Below are positions 9,378-56,267 of a stretch of DNA of 64,000 nt, piece by piece (the first letter of the stretch is position 1; every line of letters starts with the position of its first letter). The translations under genes were made by a program, and so were the position numbers. Under the pieces are notes generated by a model. The model was not told the DNA's origin and made no database searches. It was given only the letters and a program-made list of their open reading frames with translations. This stretch comes from a virus, in IMG/VR virus record IMGVR_UViG_3300047552_000255, positions 1-64,000 of that record; one strand, 5' to 3'.

Positions 9378-12300
9378 TTACCCCAGACACTGCACGAGCG
9401 CCTCAAGTTTTTGTATCTTGGACTCGATGCGGCGTACCTCCAGCTCGGCGTCCTTGATCTTGATGGTCGAGCCATCCGAGTTCTTCAGCTCCACCTCGAT
9501 GGGCACCGGGATCGGGGAAATCTCCTGCGTGGCGGCGATGGACAGCTTGCCGTCCACATATGCCTGACGCCACTTCTCCTGCTGCTCTGGCTTCAGATCA
9601 GCCCACTTACCCTGCTTGGCGGTATCTGCGTAAGTACCCCACTGGTTGCCAGCCAGAACGAGCTGACCCTTGCGCTCACTTGCATCCACCCGCGCTTTAC
9701 GCTCCTCAGGCGTCTCGACCTTCTTGGCCCTAGTGGTCGCGGGTTTGGCGGGCTTGGCTGGCACGCCTGCTACGCTGCCTGTTATCCGCCCGGTCTCTTG
9801 GTCGTTGAAGCCGCCCATTCGGTTGGAGATTGAGCGCAACTCGCCTTCCAGCAAACCCAGCTTGGAGAGCTTGGTGATCAGTTCTTCGCGGCTAAGCTCA
9901 TCGTTCATGAAGTCAACGATGGCCCGCTGGCCCGCTACGATCTTTTGCGGAAACCCGAGGTCCGCCGGATACTCGTACCGCTGCTTTACTTCGACGTCAG
10001 TGGCTTCGGAGCCTTTGTTGACGGCAGGGGTTGGTTTGCCGACCGGCTTTCCATTTCCTTGTTCGACTGTGCTTCCGCCTTCTGGTTTCGGCTGTGTCGC
10101 TGCGCTATCTCCTGCTGGACTTGCTTCAACGACGTTTGTTGCAGGCTGTCCTGATACGCGTTTAGTGCCGCCAGCATCCGCTTCACTGGCTGTGGATCGC
10201 TCGCTCTTGCCTTGAAGGTACCCATCATCAATTCCTATTCCGGCCTGCTCAGCCGCACGTTGTTGTTCCTCGAACGGGGCAACATCCACGATACCACGGT
10301 CGGCCAAGTTTTTGTAAGCGGCGTACCACAGCAGCTTGCCCAGATCGTTGAGTTGAGAGAACTCAGCAGTGCCCGAGGAGCGCATGTCGTCCCAGTCGGC
10401 AGCAGCTTGGCTCATCACGTCGGGGTCAACGTGGTGCTTGAGCATCAGACGACGCTGGTCGGGTGTCGCAGCTTGGATGGCCGCAGCCACCTCGTCCATC
10501 TGGTTGAACCGCTTTTCGTCAACCGCGTCCTCAACAGAGTTGGCCTGAGTGGCTTGCACCATCTGCCCGGTGCCGTCCTCGTTGAACTCCATCGCGGTGA
10601 CGCCGTCGTCCTTGGCCGCGAGGTTGCCCTGCTTGGTCATCTGCTTGACCGCAGTCATACCGAAGCCACCCATCTCGTTGAGGGCCTTGGTCACGGTCGA
10701 GCGGCTCTTCATACCTAGAGCGTCGGCGATCTGCTGGGCGTTCATGGGCTGGCGGGTAGAGTGACCTTCCTCGTCCAGACCGCGAGCCATGCGCAGGATG
10801 TCCCAATACTGCTTCTTCAGCGCCTTGATGCTTCCGTCTTGCCCGTGAACCAGAATGAGCTGGTCGCTGTGGCGTCCGGTCTTGGCTTCTTGCAGGGCGG
10901 TCGTGACCTTTGGGTCCGCGCCTTCCAGATTGTTGACGGGAACCAGCCCGCCCTCGGGGTTCAGGATAGAGACCAGCGCCTTGCGGTCGCGGCCTTGGGT
11001 GTCCTTGCCGAACACCACCGGGGCGTGGGCTTGTGTTGCTACTGCACCTTGCCCTGCGTTGCTGGGAACGACTGCGCTGGATACCCCGCTTTGTGCATCA
11101 GTTCCAGTTGATACAGGTACGCCACTTGCTGCGGCGGTATTTGGAGCTGCTGCGCTAGTCTGCGCTGCTCCCGTGTCAGTCGGGGCGTCTTTACCGAGGA
11201 GGACATCGGCGGCTTGTTGGAGGTCTTGTACATGCGGAACGGCAGGTGGCGCAACCGGAGCAGCGGGTGCTGTGGTGGCGGCTTGAGCGGCAGCGGCGTT
11301 GTCGGCCACGGCCTGAGTAGTGACTTGCTTGTCTTCGGCCTTTTGCTTTGCGGCTTTCTCGGCATCTCGCTTGGCTTTCTCGGCGTCACGCTTTGCTTGG
11401 GCCTGCGCCTTGTCGAACGCACGCTGGGCTTCTTGCATGTCGGAGCGCACAGCAGCAACGCCGGACTTGTCGCCCTCTTGGAGCGCCACGCGGATGCGGG
11501 CCGTAGCCTCGTCGTAGTTGTCCTGAGTCAGCACACCATTCGCTACGCCGGAGCGCAGGTCTTCGTGCAGCTTGACCAGTTCGGCTGTGACCAGCCGCTT
11601 GCCCTTGCCGTCCACCGGGCTTACCTTGCCGTCCTTGCCGGGAGACAGGAATACGCCTTCAGCGTCGGACTGCTTTTGCTTCCATGCCTGCTCGTTGGCG
11701 GCACGCTTCTCTGACTCGGCCTGTGCGGCGGCTGCGGCAGCTTGTTCCTCGGGTGTCGGAGGGGGAGCTTGCGGAACCGGAGCCGGTGGCGGAATGGTGA
11801 TAGGCGAGGCGGGCGGAGCCCCAGCGGGTGTGAGGTTCTGCCCGGTCAAGACGTTTGTAGACGCCCCACCCTCTACGAGCGCAGCGGGGGTGTTGGAGCG
11901 ACGACCGTGTATGCCGCCGAACGAACCGAGCAGACCCTCGACCATACCCCCGGCCACGCCAGCGTTAAGGCGTCGAGACGCGGCTTCTTCTGGCGACACA
12001 CTGCCGTTGTACCCCATCTCCATTTCGTTCTGGAGCAGTTCACTGGTAGCCCCGGTCGCCGCCTGAGACGCCCCGGACTTGCCCATGCGGGTGAGGAGGT
12101 TCCCGCTGAAACCGGTGCCGCGCTTGATACGCCCTAGCAGCATAGCCTCGGGCAGGGTTTCAGTGAGTCCGTATGGAACGCCACCTAGTAGTGCCGCGCC
12201 GCCCCCGTCAGGGTTTCCACCGTCTACCGACTCTTGGTACAGGGAGCCTACGCCTTGGGCGTAATTCATCGCCGCGCCGCCCATGATGTCGGACGCCATG

Positions 12301-12791
12301 CCGCGCCCCGCTTGGACGGCAGCTTTCTTGGCAGCGTAGCCTTCTGCGGCACCCATTGCACCGCCACCCAGCCACTTGGGGGCGAACGCCAGCCCACGAG
12401 ACAAGGCTGTCGGTATAGCCACTTCGGGCATCACTGCACTGGCGGCTACGGTCCCTGCGATATTGGGAACCTGCTTACCGACTTGATACATCAGCCACGC
12501 AGGCATGGAGCCGACGGACTGATCCTCGACACGCTCAAGGTCCGGGCGACCGTTGATCCGAGACTCGTACTGGTTCTCGTCAGCGCGTTGGTTCAGCCAG
12601 TCACGCGCACCTGTGGCCCCAACGGCATCCGACGCAGCAGCACCGGCTGAGTACATCAGCCCTTGGAAGTCGTCAACCCCGGACGACAAGCCCGCCGCGA
12701 GGGCGTTGCGCTTCTGCGGCTCCGGCAGGCGAACCTCATGGACGTCGCGCCACGAGTCGCTGCTCGTTACATCTTTCCAGTTTCCTGCCAT
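9378..12791 (-). CDS. Large internal virion (ejection) protein with HTH-like segment
   Basis: 1137 residues. The N-terminal third contains several Ala/Gly-rich hydrophobic stretches, as in phage internal/ejection proteins that cross the envelope. Around residues 330-600 is a long Pro/Ala and Lys/Ala/Glu low-complexity helical region. Near residues 680-730 the sequence QPMNAQQIADALGMKSRST looks like a helix-turn-helix. Residues around 840-960 are another Ser/Thr/Pro-rich linker. Two linkers are overlapped by good out-of-frame ORFs (9986-10228 and 11039-11206). An AAGG site precedes the start. The ejection role is inferred from size, composition and position. Confidence 0.65.
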   Translation of the reverse strand: MAGNWKDVTSSDSWRDVHEVRLPEPQKRNALAAGLSSGVDDFQGLMYSAGAAASDAVGATGARDWLNQRADENQYESRINGRPDLERVEDQSVGSMPAWLMYQVGKQVPNIAGTVAASAVMPEVAIPTALSRGLAFAPKWLGGGAMGAAEGYAAKKAAVQAGRGMASDIMGGAAMNYAQGVGSLYQESVDGGNPDGGGAALLGGVPYGLTETLPEAMLLGRIKRGTGFSGNLLTRMGKSGASQAATGATSELLQNEMEMGYNGSVSPEEAASRRLNAGVAGGMVEGLLGSFGGIHGRRSNTPAALVEGGASTNVLTGQNLTPAGAPPASPITIPPPAPVPQAPPPTPEEQAAAAAAQAESEKRAANEQAWKQKQSDAEGVFLSPGKDGKVSPVDGKGKRLVTAELVKLHEDLRSGVANGVLTQDNYDEATARIRVALQEGDKSGVAAVRSDMQEAQRAFDKAQAQAKRDAEKAKRDAEKAAKQKAEDKQVTTQAVADNAAAAQAATTAPAAPVAPPAVPHVQDLQQAADVLLGKDAPTDTGAAQTSAAAPNTAAASGVPVSTGTDAQSGVSSAVVPSNAGQGAVATQAHAPVVFGKDTQGRDRKALVSILNPEGGLVPVNNLEGADPKVTTALQEAKTGRHSDQLILVHGQDGSIKALKKQYWDILRMARGLDEEGHSTRQPMNAQQIADALGMKSRSTVTKALNEMGGFGMTAVKQMTKQGNLAAKDDGVTAMEFNEDGTGQMVQATQANSVEDAVDEKRFNQMDEVAAAIQAATPDQRRLMLKHHVDPDVMSQAAADWDDMRSSGTAEFSQLNDLGKLLWYAAYKNLADRGIVDVAPFEEQQRAAEQAGIGIDDGYLQGKSERSTASEADAGGTKRVSGQPATNVVEASPAGDSAATQPKPEGGSTVEQGNGKPVGKPTPAVNKGSEATDVEVKQRYEYPADLGFPQKIVAGQRAIVDFMNDELSREELITKLSKLGLLEGELRSISNRMGGFNDQETGRITGSVAGVPAKPAKPATTRAKKVETPEERKARVDASERKGQLVLAGNQWGTYADTAKQGKWADLKPEQQEKWRQAYVDGKLSIAATQEISPIPVPIEVELKNSDGSTIKIKDAELEVRRIESKIQKLEALVQCLG
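9986..10228 (-). CDS. Candidate nested gene inside the 1137-aa virion protein (80 aa)
   Basis: An out-of-frame ORF on the same strand. Three ATGs in a row (10231, 10228, 10225) follow TAGGA at 4, 7 and 10 bases. The product is soluble, basic and helical (e.g. RMLAALNAYQDSLQQTSLKQ), and its codons mostly end in G or C like real genes here. Over the same stretch the main frame is a low-complexity linker (KPEGGSTVEQGNGKPVGKP) with unusually many A/T-ending codons. This is the expected mark of overprinting, but it could also reflect an old pair of compensating frameshifts. No homology was recognised. Confidence 0.45.
   Translation of the reverse strand: MMGTFKARASDPQPVKRMLAALNAYQDSLQQTSLKQVQQEIAQRHSRNQKAEAQSNKEMESRSANQPLPSTKAPKPLTSK
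11039..11206 (-). CDS. Candidate second nested ORF in the 1137-aa virion protein (55 aa)
   Basis: Same strand, shifted frame. The ORF reads MSSSVKTPRLTREQRRLAQQ and continues as a compact helical sequence with many G/C-ending codons. The main frame here is an Ala/Thr/Ser/Pro linker with A/T-ending codons. No good ribosome-binding site is visible before the ATG at 11206, so support is weaker than for the ORF at 9986. Upstream of 11206 the same frame looks like an ordinary shadow. Confidence 0.3.
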   Translation of the reverse strand: MSSSVKTPRLTREQRRLAQQLQIPPQQVAYLYQLELMHKAGYPAQSFPATQGKVQ

Positions 12792-28974: not shown

Positions 28975-29937
28975 TTACCTGATGCGGCCTTCGGAGAGAG
29001 CTGTGTTAATCACGGCCTCGATCTGCATGGCTTCTTGCTCACGACCCCGGTAGAGTCCTCGGCGAACGTCGTCATAAAACTTGTTCACGTCGGCCTGCGA
29101 GATCACCCGGTCCTCTTGCGGGGCGGGCTGAGAAGCGCCTGTGCTTTTCGGGCTTACCTGCTTGTCCAAGGGGTCAGGCTGCGGTGCGGCTTTAGTGGGC
29201 CCGGCGAAGGTGCGGAACACGGCTGCTGCCCGTTCTGCGTTAAGCGTCTCGCGTGCATGCGTCAGAGCGTTCTGTCGCGGCACACCATAGACAGGATCAG
29301 CTTCGGCCAGCCAAGCGAGGAATCGCTCGTCGGCGTTGATCTGCTCCCAGTCTGGGACCATCTTTGCCAGCTTGTCGAAGAACATCTCCTCGGCTGTCAC
29401 CACAGTGTGTTGGGTCACCCCAGTCATCTGCTCTGACAACTTTCTGATCTGCTCCTCCAAAGCCGACGCCTTGGTCTCAAACGCTTGGGCGGCATTACGG
29501 ATCGCTCCGCTTGCTACCCGGTTCACCATGTCCACCAAGTCCTCGCCGAAGTTATCGACGTCCTTGGGGTCCACAACGTGTTTCGGTGCTTGCTGCTGCG
29601 GCTCGGGCTGTCGGGACAACTGCTCCATACGCTGCACGGCGTCTGTGAGCTGCTTCTCCAAGTCCTTGACCTGTTTGTGCAGGGCTGGGACTTCAGCGTT
29701 GTACTTTCCTTGCAGAACCTTGTACCGCGCCTCGAAGGGATCGGCTTGGGGTGCTGGGTCCGGTACAGCGGGCGCTGCTTGGGGCTCCGCCACCTGTTGT
29801 GGCTGGGCTTGCTGTTGGGGTTCCGCGTTCTCGGCTGGCAGTAAAGACAGACTGCTTGGCTCTGGGGCTTTGTTGGCCTCGGCCAGCATCGCGTCTGCTG
29901 CATCAACTTGCGCTTGAACCTGTTTGGGCAATGCCAT
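28975..29937 (-). CDS. Scaffolding protein
   Basis: 320 residues, strongly charged and helical. The N-terminal third is Pro/Gln/Ala-rich (PQADPFEARYKVLQGKYNAE), the middle forms long coiled coils (ALEEQIRKLSEQMTG), and the end is basic. The position, directly upstream of capsid genes, and composition fit an internal scaffold expelled before DNA packaging. Its promoter carries the operator element. Confidence 0.75.
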   Translation of the reverse strand: MALPKQVQAQVDAADAMLAEANKAPEPSSLSLLPAENAEPQQQAQPQQVAEPQAAPAVPDPAPQADPFEARYKVLQGKYNAEVPALHKQVKDLEKQLTDAVQRMEQLSRQPEPQQQAPKHVVDPKDVDNFGEDLVDMVNRVASGAIRNAAQAFETKASALEEQIRKLSEQMTGVTQHTVVTAEEMFFDKLAKMVPDWEQINADERFLAWLAEADPVYGVPRQNALTHARETLNAERAAAVFRTFAGPTKAAPQPDPLDKQVSPKSTGASQPAPQEDRVISQADVNKFYDDVRRGLYRGREQEAMQIEAVINTALSEGRIR

Positions 29938-30971: not shown

Positions 30972-31192
30972 TTGTGCTCAAACCCGAAGCAGTGCTTCAT
31001 TTCGTGAGCCACCAGCCAGTCGGGGGCTTCGCGCTCCATTGCAACGTAGCACCTGTCTGCCATCACCAGAGCACATCCTGCCGAGTGGCCGCACTTGCGG
31101 TCTACCCATGTGATCGTTGTTGTCTCGCGCGGGTTGGTCAGTACCATGTCAGAGCAGCCGGTGAGCAGGAGGGCTAGGAGGATGGGCTTCAT
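30968..31192 (-). CDS. Small lipoprotein with metzincin-like zinc motif
   Basis: 74 residues from the ATG at 31192. The signal MKPILLALLLTGCSD has a clear lipobox (LTGC). The C-terminus carries HEMKHCFGFEH, a full HExxHxxGxxH zinc-binding motif of metzincin-type peptidases. The gene is coupled to the head-spike fibre gene (four-base overlap). Size is far below normal metalloproteases, so activity is unproven. It could be an outer-membrane exposed exclusion or lysis factor. Confidence 0.6.
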   Translation of the reverse strand: MKPILLALLLTGCSDMVLTNPRETTTITWVDRKCGHSAGCALVMADRCYVAMEREAPDWLVAHEMKHCFGFEHK

Positions 31193-33378
31193 AGCGAGAG
31201 GGCGTCCTCTGTCGCGTTTGGCAGGCGCGTGTTGTAGTACGTCAGCCTGCGCAGCGGCCCATTCAACTGAAGAAGGCCGGACTCCGAGCAACCAAGGTAG
31301 ATGCTTGTCGGTGCAGCAGCCGTGTATCCAGTAGCCGCAACGCTTGCCTGCGCCCCTGCGTAAGAAGACCGAGCCTCAGTCGTGGAATACGCCAACACAG
31401 CTTTCTTCACGACACCAGCGGTAATCGCGCCTGTTGTTAGGTTGGCGTTCACGGTGCCATTGCCGACAACAAAGTTGCCGGGGAGTGAACTCTCTGTCGC
31501 CCGCATTGCCAGTCGATTGAGCCCAGTGTCGCTCACGGAGAAGGCGAGGTTCCTGTTCGAGTTGAAGTAGCTCACCGCGTACTCGACAACAAAAGTACCT
31601 GCCGTCCCGTTGAACCAACTGGAGAAGTTGGTGCCGTTCATCAGCGGAACATCCGCCGCCCGTGTCGCACTTGCAGCGCCAGTCACGATGATCGTGGACG
31701 CCGTGGATGCGGCTTCGAGTTGGGCGCAGTCTACGATGTAGGTGGCACCGGATACGCGCGTTCCAGAAAGGTTCGCAGATGCACTGCACAGTGCCATCCG
31801 ACCCAGCGTGAATCCACCGTTTAGCGTCACCGTCAAAGTGCAGCGATACCATCCGCCGCCCAGCGGTGTCATCGTGTTTGACGCAGCAGTGGCGACACCA
31901 AAAACAGTTGCCCCGCCTATCGCGCCTGTTTGGAGATTGAACCAGCTATAACCGCCAGCCGCTGCGGTAGAGTCAGCAGCATCCAACCGAACCCACGGGC
32001 AGTTGCCGTACTTCAAAACCTGCGACACCGTTATTGTTCCGCCTGCTGTAAAAGCTGTGGCAGGATTTTGGAAGGTGTACGCCGTGAGAGCAGTCCCCTC
32101 AGTCATCAAACACGCCGTATTAGCCACCCCATCCAAGCCTACTTGCGTTCTCGCAGGGGTAACGTCAGTCTTCGTCCACGCCGCCTGCGTCATGTCACGG
32201 CTATGCAGCAGCAGGTTGGTTCTTTGTTCTTCGATCCACAGGCCGCTGGGGGTGAAGGTGACTTCTTTGATCGACGCAGCGGCGACGGACTGAGTTGAAG
32301 CTACAGCAGCAGCAGCAAACAGGATATTCGACGCGGTTGTTACCGCAACGAAATACAGCGAACCATTGCCGTTCTGGGCGTTGGATACGGTGGTTAGGAT
32401 TGTTCCGCCTCCGCCTCCGCCATCCCTTGCGTAAATTGCCGCAGTGCCAGTTGATAGGCTATACCCCGTCCAATCAACGCGGTACGTCTTACCGGGAACA
32501 GTGGCAAGATTCAGGTATACGCGGTTAGAGCTAGCAACACCTGTTGATACGAACCCAGAGCCTGAGTTTACTGTTACGTTGTCGTACCCAGCGGGGGTAG
32601 TCCATCCGCCATTCGTCACCAACTCCCCACCCGTCACACCCGCTGGCGTTGCAGGGTCGTACATGAACCTCGGGCCGCTGGTGGACGTGCCTTGCGTGGG
32701 GCTGTAGGCGTTTGGAGAAGCACTCAACTCAAACTGCGGTGCAGACACATACAACCCGCTCACACCATCACCAGTGTAGGAAGGCGAAGGAATGCCGGTT
32801 GTGTTCGTGTCCGACACTCCAAATGTCGCGCCAAACGCAGCCCCTGCCTCAGTCAGAGTGATTGAGCAGCGATACCAACCACTGCCAATGCTTGTCATCA
32901 CCGCACTTGGGGAACCTGCTGTTGCCCCAATAGTCCCGCCCACCAAGTCGAAGATTGCGCGTCCCGCAAGCGTTGCAGACTCACACAGGTGCAGGTAGCG
33001 GCGCTCACCAGCCTTGGCGTAAATGGAAAATGTGTAGGTTCCGGTCAGTGCAGTGAACGCTCTTCCGGCATTGTGTGCGCCGGTTGTCGCGGATTCAGTC
33101 AGCTTGAACGCAGTTCCGATAGGCGAGGCAGAAGCGGCTGTGACTGTGCAGTTTGTCTTCGCCCAGTATGCGTTTGTCAGGTCATCGCTATTGAGGGCCA
33201 AATTCACCCCCATCACCTCCATCAACCCAGACGAGTTGAACCGCGTTGCCGCAGGCGCTGCGTCTGCTCGTGTGAATGTGATGCGGGGGTCGAGGGTGCC
33301 TGTGAGGAAGTCGAGATTAAGCGCGGCATACAGCGCCTGCGCCACTCCAGTGAGGGGGAAGCCGATGCCGACGTGCAT
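31189..33378 (-). CDS. Head spike/tail fibre with lectin-like domains
   Basis: 729 residues. The sequence LDPRITFTRADAAPAATRFN followed by SSGLMEV is the signature opening of phage head-spike/fibre proteins; two similar beta-sandwich-like halves with GSGWYRCSITLT and GGGWYRCTLTVT repeat this pattern; the C-terminal 170 residues resemble a laminin-G/concanavalin fold. Likely a virion surface fibre that binds glycans. Located between portal and head genes. Confidence 0.7.
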   Translation of the reverse strand: MHVGIGFPLTGVAQALYAALNLDFLTGTLDPRITFTRADAAPAATRFNSSGLMEVMGVNLALNSDDLTNAYWAKTNCTVTAASASPIGTAFKLTESATTGAHNAGRAFTALTGTYTFSIYAKAGERRYLHLCESATLAGRAIFDLVGGTIGATAGSPSAVMTSIGSGWYRCSITLTEAGAAFGATFGVSDTNTTGIPSPSYTGDGVSGLYVSAPQFELSASPNAYSPTQGTSTSGPRFMYDPATPAGVTGGELVTNGGWTTPAGYDNVTVNSGSGFVSTGVASSNRVYLNLATVPGKTYRVDWTGYSLSTGTAAIYARDGGGGGGTILTTVSNAQNGNGSLYFVAVTTASNILFAAAAVASTQSVAAASIKEVTFTPSGLWIEEQRTNLLLHSRDMTQAAWTKTDVTPARTQVGLDGVANTACLMTEGTALTAYTFQNPATAFTAGGTITVSQVLKYGNCPWVRLDAADSTAAAGGYSWFNLQTGAIGGATVFGVATAASNTMTPLGGGWYRCTLTVTLNGGFTLGRMALCSASANLSGTRVSGATYIVDCAQLEAASTASTIIVTGAASATRAADVPLMNGTNFSSWFNGTAGTFVVEYAVSYFNSNRNLAFSVSDTGLNRLAMRATESSLPGNFVVGNGTVNANLTTGAITAGVVKKAVLAYSTTEARSSYAGAQASVAATGYTAAAPTSIYLGCSESGLLQLNGPLRRLTYYNTRLPNATEDALSL

Positions 33379-33630: not shown

Positions 33631-35775
33631 TTATGCCGGTTGAGGGCTGAAGTTGTCTGTGATGGGCTGGCCGTCAGCCAGTGTCTGTCCGCTCTGTGGC
33701 CCGGCGCTCGCTTGCTGTGCGGGCTGTCCCTCGGGCTGCTGCATCTGGGAGGCAGCGAGCTGCTTCAAGCGAAGCGCCGAGAGCGAGGGGATCACGTCGT
33801 CGGGGTTCATGTTGAGGTTCTTGGCCGACTCGCGCAGTAGCGCCGCCCGGCCTTCCGGTCCCATGATCTGCATGTCGATGGGGTTGGACGTCATCTGGAG
33901 GAACTGCATGCGAGCTTGGTTAGCCGCGTCCTTGACTTGCAGCGAGAGCGCCCCGCGCGGCACGATGTTGAGGTCGCCCCGGAAGTTGAACTTGGTGTCG
34001 TACTGCATCTTCCAGTCGAAGAGGCGCTTCAGGACTGGCGACGTCACATGGATGTCCAAGCTGGAGACGAGCGACTTGATGACCTTGCTCGCGTTGCCAA
34101 CCATCATGGACAGGCCTGACGCTGTGCGCCCGGCCCCCGGCGTGCCCTCGGTGCCCGTCATGTAGCGCGGGATGCCCGAATACTCGTCGGCCATCAGGCT
34201 GAACTTGTCGTACACGCCCATCAGCTCGGAGGCGTTGGAGCCCGGCTGGAAGAACGATATGGGGCTGGCGCTCGAACCCATCGGGTCGTTGTTGAACTGC
34301 CAGATTTTCCACGGGTATAGCTCGGTCACGTCCTCGCCCGGCGCGATGCGGTCCACGTTGACACCCACCTGCGGCCCCGAGCTGATGCCCATGTTGTTAG
34401 CCAGCGCCCGCGCGGCACTGTTGCACATGCTCTGGCAGTCCTCGATGAGGTCGTACAGGCTGTTATGCCAAAACGCTCCGGGGATGCGGCTGTAGCCGTC
34501 GGCGTAGTACGGACGACGCGCCAGCGGGTCAGGGTTGATCACGGCCTTGATGGCGTACTCGCCAATCTGCCAGACCTCCACCGGGTACTCCTTGGCATCG
34601 TCCTTGATGTCCTTCATACCCCACTCGCGCAGCATCTTGCCCGAGACGTTGCCCCAATACTGGAGCGCGTCGATGAGGTCGTCGCCGCCCATCGCCATGA
34701 CGCTTGAGCGCCCCTCGGCGTGGTGTTTCTGGATGTCGATGGCAAGCCACTCGCGCAAGCCCCCTTGGCCGTGGGTGTCGAGCACCGCACGGATGGCATC
34801 CTCTGAGTAGCCGTCAACACCGATCAGGGCAGACAGCTCGCCACGGCTTAGCCGGTGACGCTGGAACAGGAACGCATCCTGCACGTTCTTCGCCCACGGG
34901 GCGGGATAAATCATGAACGGATCAACCCGCTCCCACTTGAGGGTCTTGACCTCCTGCACGTCGGCCTTGCTGGAGCCGTCGGGCTGCTGCACCCACTGCA
35001 AGCGAGACTCGATGTTGACCACCGGCCCCTTCATGAACGCAGTCTTGAATACCGTGAGGTCGTCCAGAAACTCGCTCAGCGCTTCGAGGTAGTTACCCTC
35101 CACCAGCGCGTCTTCGAGCGCGTCCTCGGCCTTGCTGGACTCGAACCGTGCGGTCTGCATGATCTGGTCTTCGGCCCGGTCGCGTGCGTCGCGCAACAAC
35201 TGGCGGATGATGGGAACTTCCATCGGCATGCCGCTCATCTCGGCTTGCATGACCGTCTGCTGCACCGCCTGCATGATCTGCGTGACGTCTTCTTGCGGCA
35301 GGTCTGGCTTGGGTGAGGGAGAGATGGTCCAAGGTTTCTCAGCGCCCGAGCCGATCATGACGTCGGCCAAGAGCGCCTTGGCCTGCCGCGCCTTGGTAGC
35401 GAAGAGCATCATGTAGATGGTGGAGCCGCCGTTGGCGTTGAGCTTGGCTTCCATCTCGGCGGAGTAGCGCCCGGCCTTGGCGCGGACTGCTTCGAGCATC
35501 TTGCGCTCGGGTTCGAGCTTGGCGATCTTGGCAATGCTCCAGTGCTTCTGCAACTGAGCGACGAGTCCTTGCACCAGCGGCTGGCTGGATTCCTGCATGG
35601 CACGCTGCGTCGCAGCGGCTGTGGCGTCCTCGGCCTGCATAGCGGCCAGAGACTTGACGGGCATGAGCCCACCCAGATTGTTGGGTGTGGGAGCTGCCGG
35701 GGCAGCGACGGTTGGACTTTCCTCGGGTTGAGGTGCCCACGAGAACGATGTCGGAGGGGTCAGACCAAGCGCCAT
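33631..35775 (-). CDS. Portal protein
   Basis: 714 residues from the ATG at 35775; a longer frame exists only as a shadow inside the terminase gene. The central region from SIAKIAKLEPERKMLEAVRA through YSRIPGAFWHNSLYDLIED and GIPRYMTGTEGTPGAGRTAS is typical of large podovirus portals; the C-terminus is Gln/Pro-rich. It forms the dodecameric channel for DNA packaging. It has its own promoter with a special palindrome (35798-35826). Confidence 0.85.
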   Translation of the reverse strand: MALGLTPPTSFSWAPQPEESPTVAAPAAPTPNNLGGLMPVKSLAAMQAEDATAAATQRAMQESSQPLVQGLVAQLQKHWSIAKIAKLEPERKMLEAVRAKAGRYSAEMEAKLNANGGSTIYMMLFATKARQAKALLADVMIGSGAEKPWTISPSPKPDLPQEDVTQIMQAVQQTVMQAEMSGMPMEVPIIRQLLRDARDRAEDQIMQTARFESSKAEDALEDALVEGNYLEALSEFLDDLTVFKTAFMKGPVVNIESRLQWVQQPDGSSKADVQEVKTLKWERVDPFMIYPAPWAKNVQDAFLFQRHRLSRGELSALIGVDGYSEDAIRAVLDTHGQGGLREWLAIDIQKHHAEGRSSVMAMGGDDLIDALQYWGNVSGKMLREWGMKDIKDDAKEYPVEVWQIGEYAIKAVINPDPLARRPYYADGYSRIPGAFWHNSLYDLIEDCQSMCNSAARALANNMGISSGPQVGVNVDRIAPGEDVTELYPWKIWQFNNDPMGSSASPISFFQPGSNASELMGVYDKFSLMADEYSGIPRYMTGTEGTPGAGRTASGLSMMVGNASKVIKSLVSSLDIHVTSPVLKRLFDWKMQYDTKFNFRGDLNIVPRGALSLQVKDAANQARMQFLQMTSNPIDMQIMGPEGRAALLRESAKNLNMNPDDVIPSLSALRLKQLAASQMQQPEGQPAQQASAGPQSGQTLADGQPITDNFSPQPA

Positions 35776-35797
35776 AGTTAGTCCATGAAGTTGGCCG

Positions 35798-35826
35798 AGT
35801 ATATAACAGGCTAACCTGTTTGCAAA
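35798..35826 (-). promoter_or_regulatory. Portal promoter with AACAGG-TTAG-CCTGTT palindrome
   Basis: -10 TATACT (35798-35803), 17 bp, -35 TTTGCA (35821-35826). The spacer is filled by a perfect inverted repeat, AACAGG and CCTGTT around TTAG (35805-35820), a variant of the common element. It would drive portal and all downstream late genes. Confidence 0.55.
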
Positions 35827-35827
35827 C

Positions 35828-37261
35828 CTAGCTGTAAACGTACGAGCTGCGCTTGGGTGTCTGAGCCGCCCTTCGTCCCATGTTGGGGCCGCCGTGGTGG
35901 ATGATGTTGTAGTGCAGCGCCAGATACTGCGCCGCGTCCGAAATGTGGCTGTGGTGGCTCTTGTCGGGGGTGAGCGTCGTCTGACCGCTGGCTGACTTCT
36001 TGTACCGGTAGCCCCACTCACAGGCCTCGATGAAGTACGGGCACTCGGGGTCGATCAAAAAGGCAGGTCCACCGTCGATTTGGCGTGAAAACAGGCCCTC
36101 AACAGCGTCAATTCGCCTCTCCGGGTCGTTTGTGGAGGCCTTTACGACCCTGAAACCCCGGTTCTGGATGGCCTGCGCGATGGTCATTTCGTTGACCTGA
36201 GAGCGCTGAAAACAGGCCGGATCGACCACAAAAACGATACTTTCGGGCCGAATTTGGGGAAATTTGCTCCGCAGCAGGGGTATTAGGAGCCTGTCGAGGT
36301 AGCTCTCCACCCCCATCGTCTGCTCCTCTGGCACGTAGCACTCGGCCAGCACGTTGACCCGCCCGCGCATATCGAGCTGCCCCACCACAGCCGCAGCTTG
36401 CAGCCCGTTGTCCATGCCCACAATCAGCGGATTCACGCTTGCCGAGACGGCCTTGAGCGGGTCTTTTGCTACGTGGAAGTCGCGCCTGAAGCTCGCTTTG
36501 TACACCGGCTGGCCCATGTTGCCCGGCCCGAAGTTGTTCTTGAGGTAGACGTCGATCCACCCCTCGGTGTTCGCAGCCAGTAGGTTGTCGTAGTAGTCGG
36601 CAGCGAGGTTGGACAGGTTTTCCGCGTCGGGGTTGATGGAGCCGTCTGCGAGGATGGCGCTTGGCTGGATAAACACCTCGGTGTTCGTGGGCGGCTTGGT
36701 GATCAACTCGTGCCAGAAGCCCCCAAGAGGCGGCGGGTTGGTCGAGCAGATGACTCCGGGGTAGGTAACCCCGCCGGACGCCATATTAGGGAAGCGGGCT
36801 GTACGGCCTTGGAGACCAGCGAACACCTCGGGGTCCACCTCACGGGACTCCTCCACCCAAGCGGCTGAGCACTCCACAGAGAGCAGGCGTCGCACGTCAT
36901 CTGGCGTGTCTGCGGCCATCAGGACGAACTCAGTGTGCACGACGGTCCCATCAGGAATGCGCACCTTGATCTCAAACGTGTTGTCGGTCAGCCTCCACTG
37001 CCCCATCGGGTGGGGCGGCATCGTAACCATCCACTGGTCAATGAGGGGCTTGACGGTTGCCTTCAACTGAGCGGCAGTGTTGCGCAGCACGATGAACTTG
37101 GTGCGCCGGATGTTGTTGTGCGGCACCTGATTGAATGCGCGGTCGAGCAGGTCAAAGAACGCCACCGTGGACTTGCCCCCACCCACCGGGCCCATGATGA
37201 TCTTGATGAACTTGCGGCTGGCAAGGAACAGGTTGCCCGTGGGGCTTGCGTTGTAGTTCAT
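35828..37261 (-). CDS. terL: Terminase large subunit
   Basis: 477 residues. ATPase domain with Walker A GPVGGGKST (about residues 24-32) and a Walker B-like stretch around CSAAWVEESREVDPE. RNase H-like nuclease domain with GMDNGL, a following acidic strand FVVDPACF and the late HSHISDAAQYLA. It packages DNA into proheads through the portal. Coupled to the upstream small gene by a four-base overlap. Confidence 0.9.
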   Translation of the reverse strand: MNYNASPTGNLFLASRKFIKIIMGPVGGGKSTVAFFDLLDRAFNQVPHNNIRRTKFIVLRNTAAQLKATVKPLIDQWMVTMPPHPMGQWRLTDNTFEIKVRIPDGTVVHTEFVLMAADTPDDVRRLLSVECSAAWVEESREVDPEVFAGLQGRTARFPNMASGGVTYPGVICSTNPPPLGGFWHELITKPPTNTEVFIQPSAILADGSINPDAENLSNLAADYYDNLLAANTEGWIDVYLKNNFGPGNMGQPVYKASFRRDFHVAKDPLKAVSASVNPLIVGMDNGLQAAAVVGQLDMRGRVNVLAECYVPEEQTMGVESYLDRLLIPLLRSKFPQIRPESIVFVVDPACFQRSQVNEMTIAQAIQNRGFRVVKASTNDPERRIDAVEGLFSRQIDGGPAFLIDPECPYFIEACEWGYRYKKSASGQTTLTPDKSHHSHISDAAQYLALHYNIIHHGGPNMGRRAAQTPKRSSYVYS

Positions 37262-55208: not shown

Positions 55209-56267
55209 ATGGCAGTAATACGAGAAAGAGCAGGCAACTATCAGGCCATCGTCCGGGTCAAAGTGGACGGCCACCTGTACAAGGAAGCCCGCACGTTCCG
55301 CACGGAGCGACTCGCCAAGGACTGGGCCAGCCGACTGGAAGCTGACCTCAAGGTCAATGGCGTTGCGCAACGCGTGAAGGGTAACACCACACTGGGCAGC
55401 TTGCTCTTGATGTACCTCGAAGCGCTCAACGCAGTCAAGCCGGTGCGCCGTCAGATGTCATGGGAAATCAACCGCCTTGCAGAGGAGTTCAAAGATGACA
55501 AACTCACATCCATATCTTCCAAGCGACTGGTCAACTTCGGGGTCAAGCGAGCCCAAGCCGGAGCCGCAGGAGCCACAGTCCTCCACGACCTCGCAACAGT
55601 ACGAGCGTGCCTCGGCGCAGCAAAACCAATGTTCGGAATCGCTGTTAATGCAGAGAGCGCAGAAGCTGCAATTGCAGCTCTACAACGCGTTGGAGCAGCC
55701 GCTCGAAGTAAGAGCCGCGAAAGACGCCCAACAAGCGAAGAACTGCTGGCCCTACACCGAGAGTTCGAGCGCATATCATCCCACCCCAGCACCCGCATCC
55801 CGATGGCAACGATTCTCAAAGTGGCTATCGCGTTTCCGCGCAGGCTGGGCGAGCTGATGGACATGCGCTGGGAGGACTTCACTGGCGACCAGATCATCCT
55901 GCGAGACACCAAGCACCCGGTGGCCCCGCGCACGGAGACAGTACCAGTGCCTGAAGACGCTGCCTCAATTTTTGAGTCACTGCCCAAGATCGACGAGCGC
56001 ATGCTGCCGTACAACCCGGAGTCGGTGAGCGCGTCGTTCGAGCGGGCATGCAAGCGGCTGAGCATCGAGGACTTGCGGTTTCATGATCTGCGCCACGAAG
56101 GCATCACCCGGCTGTTCGACGCGGGGCTGAGCATTCAGGAAGTCTCCATGATCTCCGGGCACAAGAGCTGGGGCATGCTCAAGCGTTACACGCACCTTGC
56201 CCCCAAGGCCATAGCTGATAAGCTGCGCGGCACGTCGCGGCTCAACGAATGGAGGGACACCCTCTAA
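55209..56267 (+). CDS. int: Complete tyrosine recombinase (phage integrase)
   Basis: 352 residues, CAGGAG before the ATG. N-terminal arm-binding-like segment (RAGNYQAIVRVKVDGHLYKE), core-binding helices, then the catalytic domain: RRLGELMDMRWEDF (Arg I), HDLRHEGITRLFD (HxxR), GHKSWGMLKRYTHL (His and Tyr nucleophile). The middle (about residues 95-216) has an unusual set of A-ending and rare codons (CGA, ACA, ATA, CTA), just where an out-of-frame ORF overlaps. The stop overlaps the helicase start. Confidence 0.9.
   Translation: MAVIRERAGNYQAIVRVKVDGHLYKEARTFRTERLAKDWASRLEADLKVNGVAQRVKGNTTLGSLLLMYLEALNAVKPVRRQMSWEINRLAEEFKDDKLTSISSKRLVNFGVKRAQAGAAGATVLHDLATVRACLGAAKPMFGIAVNAESAEAAIAALQRVGAAARSKSRERRPTSEELLALHREFERISSHPSTRIPMATILKVAIAFPRRLGELMDMRWEDFTGDQIILRDTKHPVAPRTETVPVPEDAASIFESLPKIDERMLPYNPESVSASFERACKRLSIEDLRFHDLRHEGITRLFDAGLSIQEVSMISGHKSWGMLKRYTHLAPKAIADKLRGTSRLNEWRDTL
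55495..55857 (+). CDS. Candidate overprinted gene inside the integrase (120 aa)
   Basis: The ORF has AGAGGAG seven bases before ATG 55495, stronger than many true genes here. Product: MTNSHPYLPSDWSTSGSSEP, then Pro/Glu/Gln-rich sequence, a Gln-rich helix, and a basic amphipathic C-terminus (RWQRFSKWLSRFRAGWAS). Its codons mostly end in G/C (GAG CCC AAG CCG GAG CCG CAG GAG) while the integrase frame is abnormal over just this interval. No homologue recognised. Confidence 0.55.
   Translation: MTNSHPYLPSDWSTSGSSEPKPEPQEPQSSTTSQQYERASAQQNQCSESLLMQRAQKLQLQLYNALEQPLEVRAAKDAQQAKNCWPYTESSSAYHPTPAPASRWQRFSKWLSRFRAGWAS

What the first reader, a model, noticed from the sequence alone, without database searches (positions are those of the whole stretch)
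55495..55857. Overprinted gene inside the integrase
A 120-codon out-of-frame ORF has an excellent ribosome-binding site (AGAGGAG, seven bases) and G/C-ending codons, while the integrase frame shows rare A-ending codons only across this interval. The product is Pro/Gln-rich with a basic amphipathic end and matches nothing I recognise. If real, integration and another activity are encoded on the same DNA.
Basis: partly seen in the sequence, partly recalled or inferred. Interest (0 to 1): 0.72.

Follow-up and report, generated by a model that had tools for sequence, protein, structure and literature searches.

The report
Possible overprinted gene in phage integrase
Inside a phage's integrase gene lies a second, out-of-frame reading frame that a sister phage shares, with the same start codon and ribosome-binding site; it may be a real hidden gene, but a third related integrase lacks it and nothing shows yet that it is translated.

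Summary
In detail: a 120-codon +1-frame ORF (55495-55857) with AGAGGAG-N7-ATG lies inside a tyrosine integrase (55209-56267), and the integrase's GC3 drops from 0.72/0.82 to 0.55 across it. The 'G/C-ending codons' point is not independent evidence: nested position 3 is the integrase's position 1.

For: a syntenic sister phage (L005, integrase 58% identical) keeps the frame open for 142 codons from the same ATG with GAGGAG. Across 7,695 codons aligned between the phages it is the longest shared off-frame run (132, next 87); a shared-ATG ORF this long arises anywhere in the genome in 0.75% of synonymous permutations. Composition-corrected synonymous identity is raised only across the ORF (z 3.1 versus 1.0 and 1.4). 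Among 89 homologues only these two have an ATG ORF of 100 codons or more there. Against: a 66%-identical integrase (L004) lacks the start and has two stops; the nested stop is not conserved; nested amino-acid similarity is no better than shared codons predict (P=0.10); no relatives were found.

Verdict: a candidate overprinted gene of one phage lineage, about even odds; chance is the main rival.

The parts
55209..56267 (+). tyrosine recombinase (integrase), 352 aa; host gene of the nested ORF
   Evidence: PF00589 E=9e-16, phrog_1 E=2e-41
55495..55857 (+). nested +1-frame ORF, 120 aa; possible in-frame TTG start at 55477
   Evidence: start and open frame shared with L005
55481..55487 (+). Shine-Dalgarno-like AGAGGAG, 7 bases before the nested ATG
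   Evidence: only 9 of 100 off-frame ATGs in the window's genes have a match this long; GAGGAG also in L005
55491..55730 (+). stretch of the integrase with low GC3 (A-ending codons)
   Evidence: GC3 0.45 over 80 codons
56267..57817 (+). SNF2-type helicase gene next to the integrase; marks the syntenic sister phages
   Evidence: 84% identical in L005's contig; phage matches are annotated SNF2 family helicase

Best explanation
The ORF is most likely, at about even odds, a lineage-specific overprinted gene. Ribosomes would start internally on the integrase mRNA at GAGGAG-N7-AUG and make a small protein in the +1 frame from the DNA that encodes the middle of the integrase. Shown: the shared start, ribosome-binding site and open frame in two sister phages, and synonymous conservation confined to the ORF. 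Inferred: translation and function. The predicted product has a disordered N-terminus, a long central helix and a basic amphipathic C-terminal helix rich in Trp and Arg (low-confidence models). Such a protein could bind DNA, a membrane or another protein, for example as an accessory or regulator made together with the integrase; that last step is a guess.
For: The same ATG codon and GAGGAG occur in L005, with the frame open for 142 codons. It is the longest shared same-strand off-frame run in 7,695 aligned codons, 132 against 87, and the only long one with a shared ATG; genome-wide permutation P is 0.0075 for the ATG ORF and 0.08-0.15 for the run alone. Stop depletion P is 0.001 (window) and 0.004 (L005), or 0.02 for L005 with codons shared with the window held fixed, and is absent from the +2 frame. 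87 of 89 homologues lack such an ORF, and the family as a whole shows no clear stop depletion (431 seen, 464 expected), so the protein fold alone does not force it. Composition-corrected synonymous identity has z 3.1 inside the ORF, 1.0 before and 1.4 after; the region is in about the top 3% of windows genome-wide. The +1 coding score is the highest of all +1 windows in this phage and about 3 SD above the off-frame mean in L005.
Against: L004 (66% integrase identity) has no start and two stops. The nested stop is not conserved (120 against 142 codons). Nested amino-acid similarity is what shared codons alone give (BLOSUM P=0.10, while the +2 control frame gives P=0.018). dNN/dNS is about 0.65 in all three pairs, including those with L004, so it is not specific. 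No homologue in PHROGs, Pfam, PDB or phage records. The structure models are poor (pLDDT 65 and 59, pTM 0.30 and 0.25). Only two sequences carry the ORF. The tests overlap with each other, and the permutations cover only same-strand frames.
Confidence: 0.45

Rival explanations
1. The ORF is a chance open frame. The integrase's amino acids and a local run of A- and C-ending codons leave the +1 frame without stops, and the sister phage shares part of the same codons by descent.
For: Four other genes in the window have same-strand off-frame ATG ORFs of at least 120 codons. L004 lacks the ORF but still shows mild stop depletion (2 seen, 5.1 expected, P=0.012), so depletion does not need a gene. 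Nested amino-acid similarity is explained by shared codons. dNN/dNS is not specific. Distant homologues L115 and L116 also have +1 runs of about 100 codons.
Against: A shared-ATG ORF of at least 120 arises anywhere in the genome in 0.75% of permutations that keep codon sharing. Synonymous excess is confined to the ORF. The stop-depletion null is calibrated genome-wide.
Confidence: 0.42
2. The synonymous conservation reflects something other than a protein, such as an RNA structure or a DNA site used in recombination or regulation, and the open frame is incidental.
For: Synonymous excess is present but modest, while nested protein similarity is not in excess.
Against: The excess is spread over about 120 codons and ends near the ORF ends. 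The start region is not unusually structured (z=+1.0). The rest of the region was not tested for structure.
Confidence: 0.08
3. The middle of the integrase was exchanged by recombination with a lower-GC, L005-like phage, giving the A-ending codons and the similarity.
For: The window's GC3 in the segment (0.55) is like that of L005's integrase, and synonymous identity with L005 is higher there.
Against: Amino-acid identity with L005 is not raised there (0.51 against 0.56 and 0.60), and at the amino-acid level the segment is closer to L004 (0.59).
Confidence: 0.03
4. The +1 frame is reached by programmed frameshifting at GAG GAG TTC AAA G, an SD-like sequence just before a slippery Lys codon, which would give an integrase N-terminus fused to the nested sequence.
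For: SD-like sequence followed by TTC or TTT, then AAA G, in both phages; the layout resembles the prfB site (own knowledge).
Against: No stop or obviously rare codon at the shift site, and an AUG at good spacing makes internal initiation simpler.
Confidence: 0.02

Closest known systems
Rz1 nested in Rz (phage lambda and relatives)
   Same: A small protein encoded out of frame inside another phage gene (own knowledge; spanins are treated in PMC6139136 and PMC5295617, listed, not read in full).
   Different: Rz1 is a lipoprotein that works with its host gene's product and is genetically proven; nothing of that kind is seen here.
Overprinted genes of viruses (review PMC8227390, abstract only)
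   Same: A new ORF inside an older gene, limited to one lineage, without homologues, predicted partly disordered and basic.
   Different: Established cases have evidence of expression or selection (own knowledge); here selection is only suggested and expression is untested.
Tyrosine recombinases of phages such as Burkholderia phages BcepIL02 and DC1
   Same: The host gene belongs here (about 35% identity).
   Different: None of the 86 distant homologues examined (from viral contigs and genomes, mostly 26-39% identical) carries an ATG ORF of at least 100 codons in +1 at this place.

Membership tests
Out-of-frame nested (overprinted) gene | Open frame with start and ribosome-binding site | tested here: met
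Out-of-frame nested (overprinted) gene | Start and open frame kept in relatives beyond chance | tested here: inconclusive
   Kept in L005 (genome-wide P 0.0075), absent in L004
Out-of-frame nested (overprinted) gene | Reduced synonymous change in the host frame over the ORF | tested here: inconclusive
   z 3.1 inside, 1.0 and 1.4 outside, one pair only; about top 3% genome-wide
Out-of-frame nested (overprinted) gene | Purifying selection on the nested protein | tested here: inconclusive
   Not detected: similarity no better than shared codons give, P=0.10; dNN/dNS not specific. One pair at 41% nested identity has little power.
Out-of-frame nested (overprinted) gene | Translated product | not testable with these tools
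   needs ribosome profiling or peptides
Tyrosine recombinase (host frame) | Phage_integrase domain with the HxLRH ... GH ... Y motif order | tested here: met
   PF00589; FHDLRHEG, SGHKSW and KRYTH read in the alignment

The most novel reading that the evidence does not exclude
A phage integrase gene doubles as the code for a second, unrelated small protein in the +1 frame, started internally on the same mRNA, so that the recombinase and a lineage-specific accessory protein are made together and constrain each other's evolution.
Probability: 0.42. Interest if true: 0.65.

Novelty: new member of a known kind. Interest (0 to 1): 0.45.

Why it matters
Out-of-frame nested genes are missed by gene finders and few are established in double-stranded DNA phages. 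One inside an integrase, shared by two sister phages, would tie a second activity to the integration gene and give a traceable case of a gene born by overprinting. If it is chance, it is a useful warning: ribosome-binding site, length and codon bias in one genome were not enough to decide.

Tried and rejected
Family searches of the nested protein gave only chance-level hits (phrog_1065 E=0.017, SPATA3 E=0.27, FXMRP1_C_core E=0.07, one PDB chain E=0.47). tblastn of the nested proteins in phage records gave nothing of note. Eight scans of IMG/VR, one of genome contigs and about 1,170 genomes around the L004 MAG gave no further integrase relative above 50% identity apart from a truncated copy. 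The raw tblastn E of 2e-16 between the two nested frames was set aside because the overlying integrases are homologous. dNN/dNS was dropped as evidence because it gives the same value for pairs without the ORF. The antisense 204-aa ORF 55451-56065 is open in both phages, but stops in that frame are expected to be rare anyway (0.4-1.0 expected), so it was not pursued. The tree could not place the root within the trio, so gain and loss of the ORF cannot be told apart.

Full report
What is there. The window is part of a 68,137-base virus record; an identical stretch lies in IMGVR_UViG_3300042988_000215. It carries terminase, portal/head-tail adaptor, major head, tail fibre, internal virion and DarB-like antirestriction genes. 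The integrase at 55209-56267 is a tyrosine recombinase. In its +1 frame, ORF 55495-55857 has 120 codons and AGAGGAG seven bases before the ATG. GC3 of the integrase is 0.72, 0.55 and 0.82 before, across and after the ORF. The nested frame's own third position is the integrase's first position, so its G/C richness adds nothing.

Is it more than chance in this genome? Resampling the integrase's synonymous codons gives a +1 ATG ORF of at least 120 in 0.4-0.7% of trials. Four other genes have similar off-frame ORFs, so length alone is weak. In 122-codon windows over 23 genes the permutation null is well calibrated, and the integrase region is the strongest +1 stop depletion. Only 9 of 100 off-frame ATGs have an SD match of five or more bases.

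Relatives. Only two other integrases above 50% identity over their full length were found. L004 (66%) sits on a contig of a Burkholderiales MAG beside a PIN-like ORF (own reading of the ORF list), and no copy of the phage helicase was found in that genome. Its nested frame has no ATG (TTC CGC AAC GAC), a stop at the 17th codon and another near the 104th. L005 (58%) lies in a syntenic sister phage (helicase 84%, other genes about 38-87%). Its nested frame starts with the same ATG (GAG GAG TTT AAA GAT GCA) and is open for 142 codons, running past the window's stop. The three form one clade with an unresolved root.

Tests of the pair. (a) Across 25 gene pairs and 7,695 codons, the nested ORF is the longest shared same-strand off-frame run (132; next 87) and the only long one with a shared ATG. 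Permutations that keep codon sharing give genome-wide P=0.0075 for the ATG ORF and 0.08-0.15 for the run. (b) Stop depletion is P=0.001 in the window and 0.004 in L005, or 0.02 with codons shared with the window held fixed, and is specific to +1. L004 is also mildly depleted (P=0.012), which fits either a recent loss or a cause other than a gene. (c) Composition-corrected synonymous identity is z=3.1 inside the ORF, 1.0 before and 1.4 after, in about the top 3% of windows genome-wide. (d) The +1 codon score is the highest of all +1 windows in this phage; an overlap of the terminase and portal reading frames scores high in the same tests and serves as a positive control. (e) Nested amino-acid similarity, once shared codons are fixed, is not in excess (P=0.10), and the +2 control frame does as well. 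(f) An OLGenie-like dNN/dNS is about 0.65 in all pairs, so it does not discriminate.

Wider family. In 89 homologues the +1 frame over this region shows no general stop depletion (431 seen, 464 expected). Only window and L005 have an ATG ORF of 100 or more codons there, and it begins at the same codon.

Product. No family match. AlphaFold models of both nested proteins, at low confidence, show a disordered start, a long central helix and a C-terminal helix (RWQRFSKWLSRFRAGW in the window). Two-sequence alignments of a Q- and A-rich sequence can give helices by default, so this is weak.

Judgement. The evidence lifts the ORF well above the usual chance ORF but stops short of a gene: two sequences, overlapping tests, one contrary relative, no protein-level constraint detected and no expression data. 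I put a translated, useful product at about 0.45 and chance at about 0.42; these are judgements, not computed posteriors.

Noticed in passing
L039:3031-3408 (IMGVR_UViG_3300037408_000144): In a related phage with the same helicase neighbour, the integrase is reduced to its C-terminal catalytic piece (codons about 209-339, 68% identical); the N-terminal half, including most of the nested-ORF region, was not found.
   Followed up: partly
31189-33378 (-): A tail-protein gene with a 158-codon off-frame ATG ORF and stop depletion as strong as in the integrase (0 seen, about 4.5 expected); no L005 homologue was found for a comparison.
   Followed up: no
28975-29937 (-): A gene with a 126-codon +1 ATG ORF whose +1 coding score is the highest in L005 and the next after the integrase here; shared open run 85 codons, no shared ATG.
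   Followed up: partly
33631-36021 and 35828-37261 (-): Portal and terminase ORFs overlap by 194 bases as listed; the conservation pattern suggests the portal's GTG start at 36021 is too early.
   Followed up: no
9378-12791 (-): A 1,137-aa protein with no PHROGs match and local GC3 dips to 0.39, lower than the integrase's.
   Followed up: no
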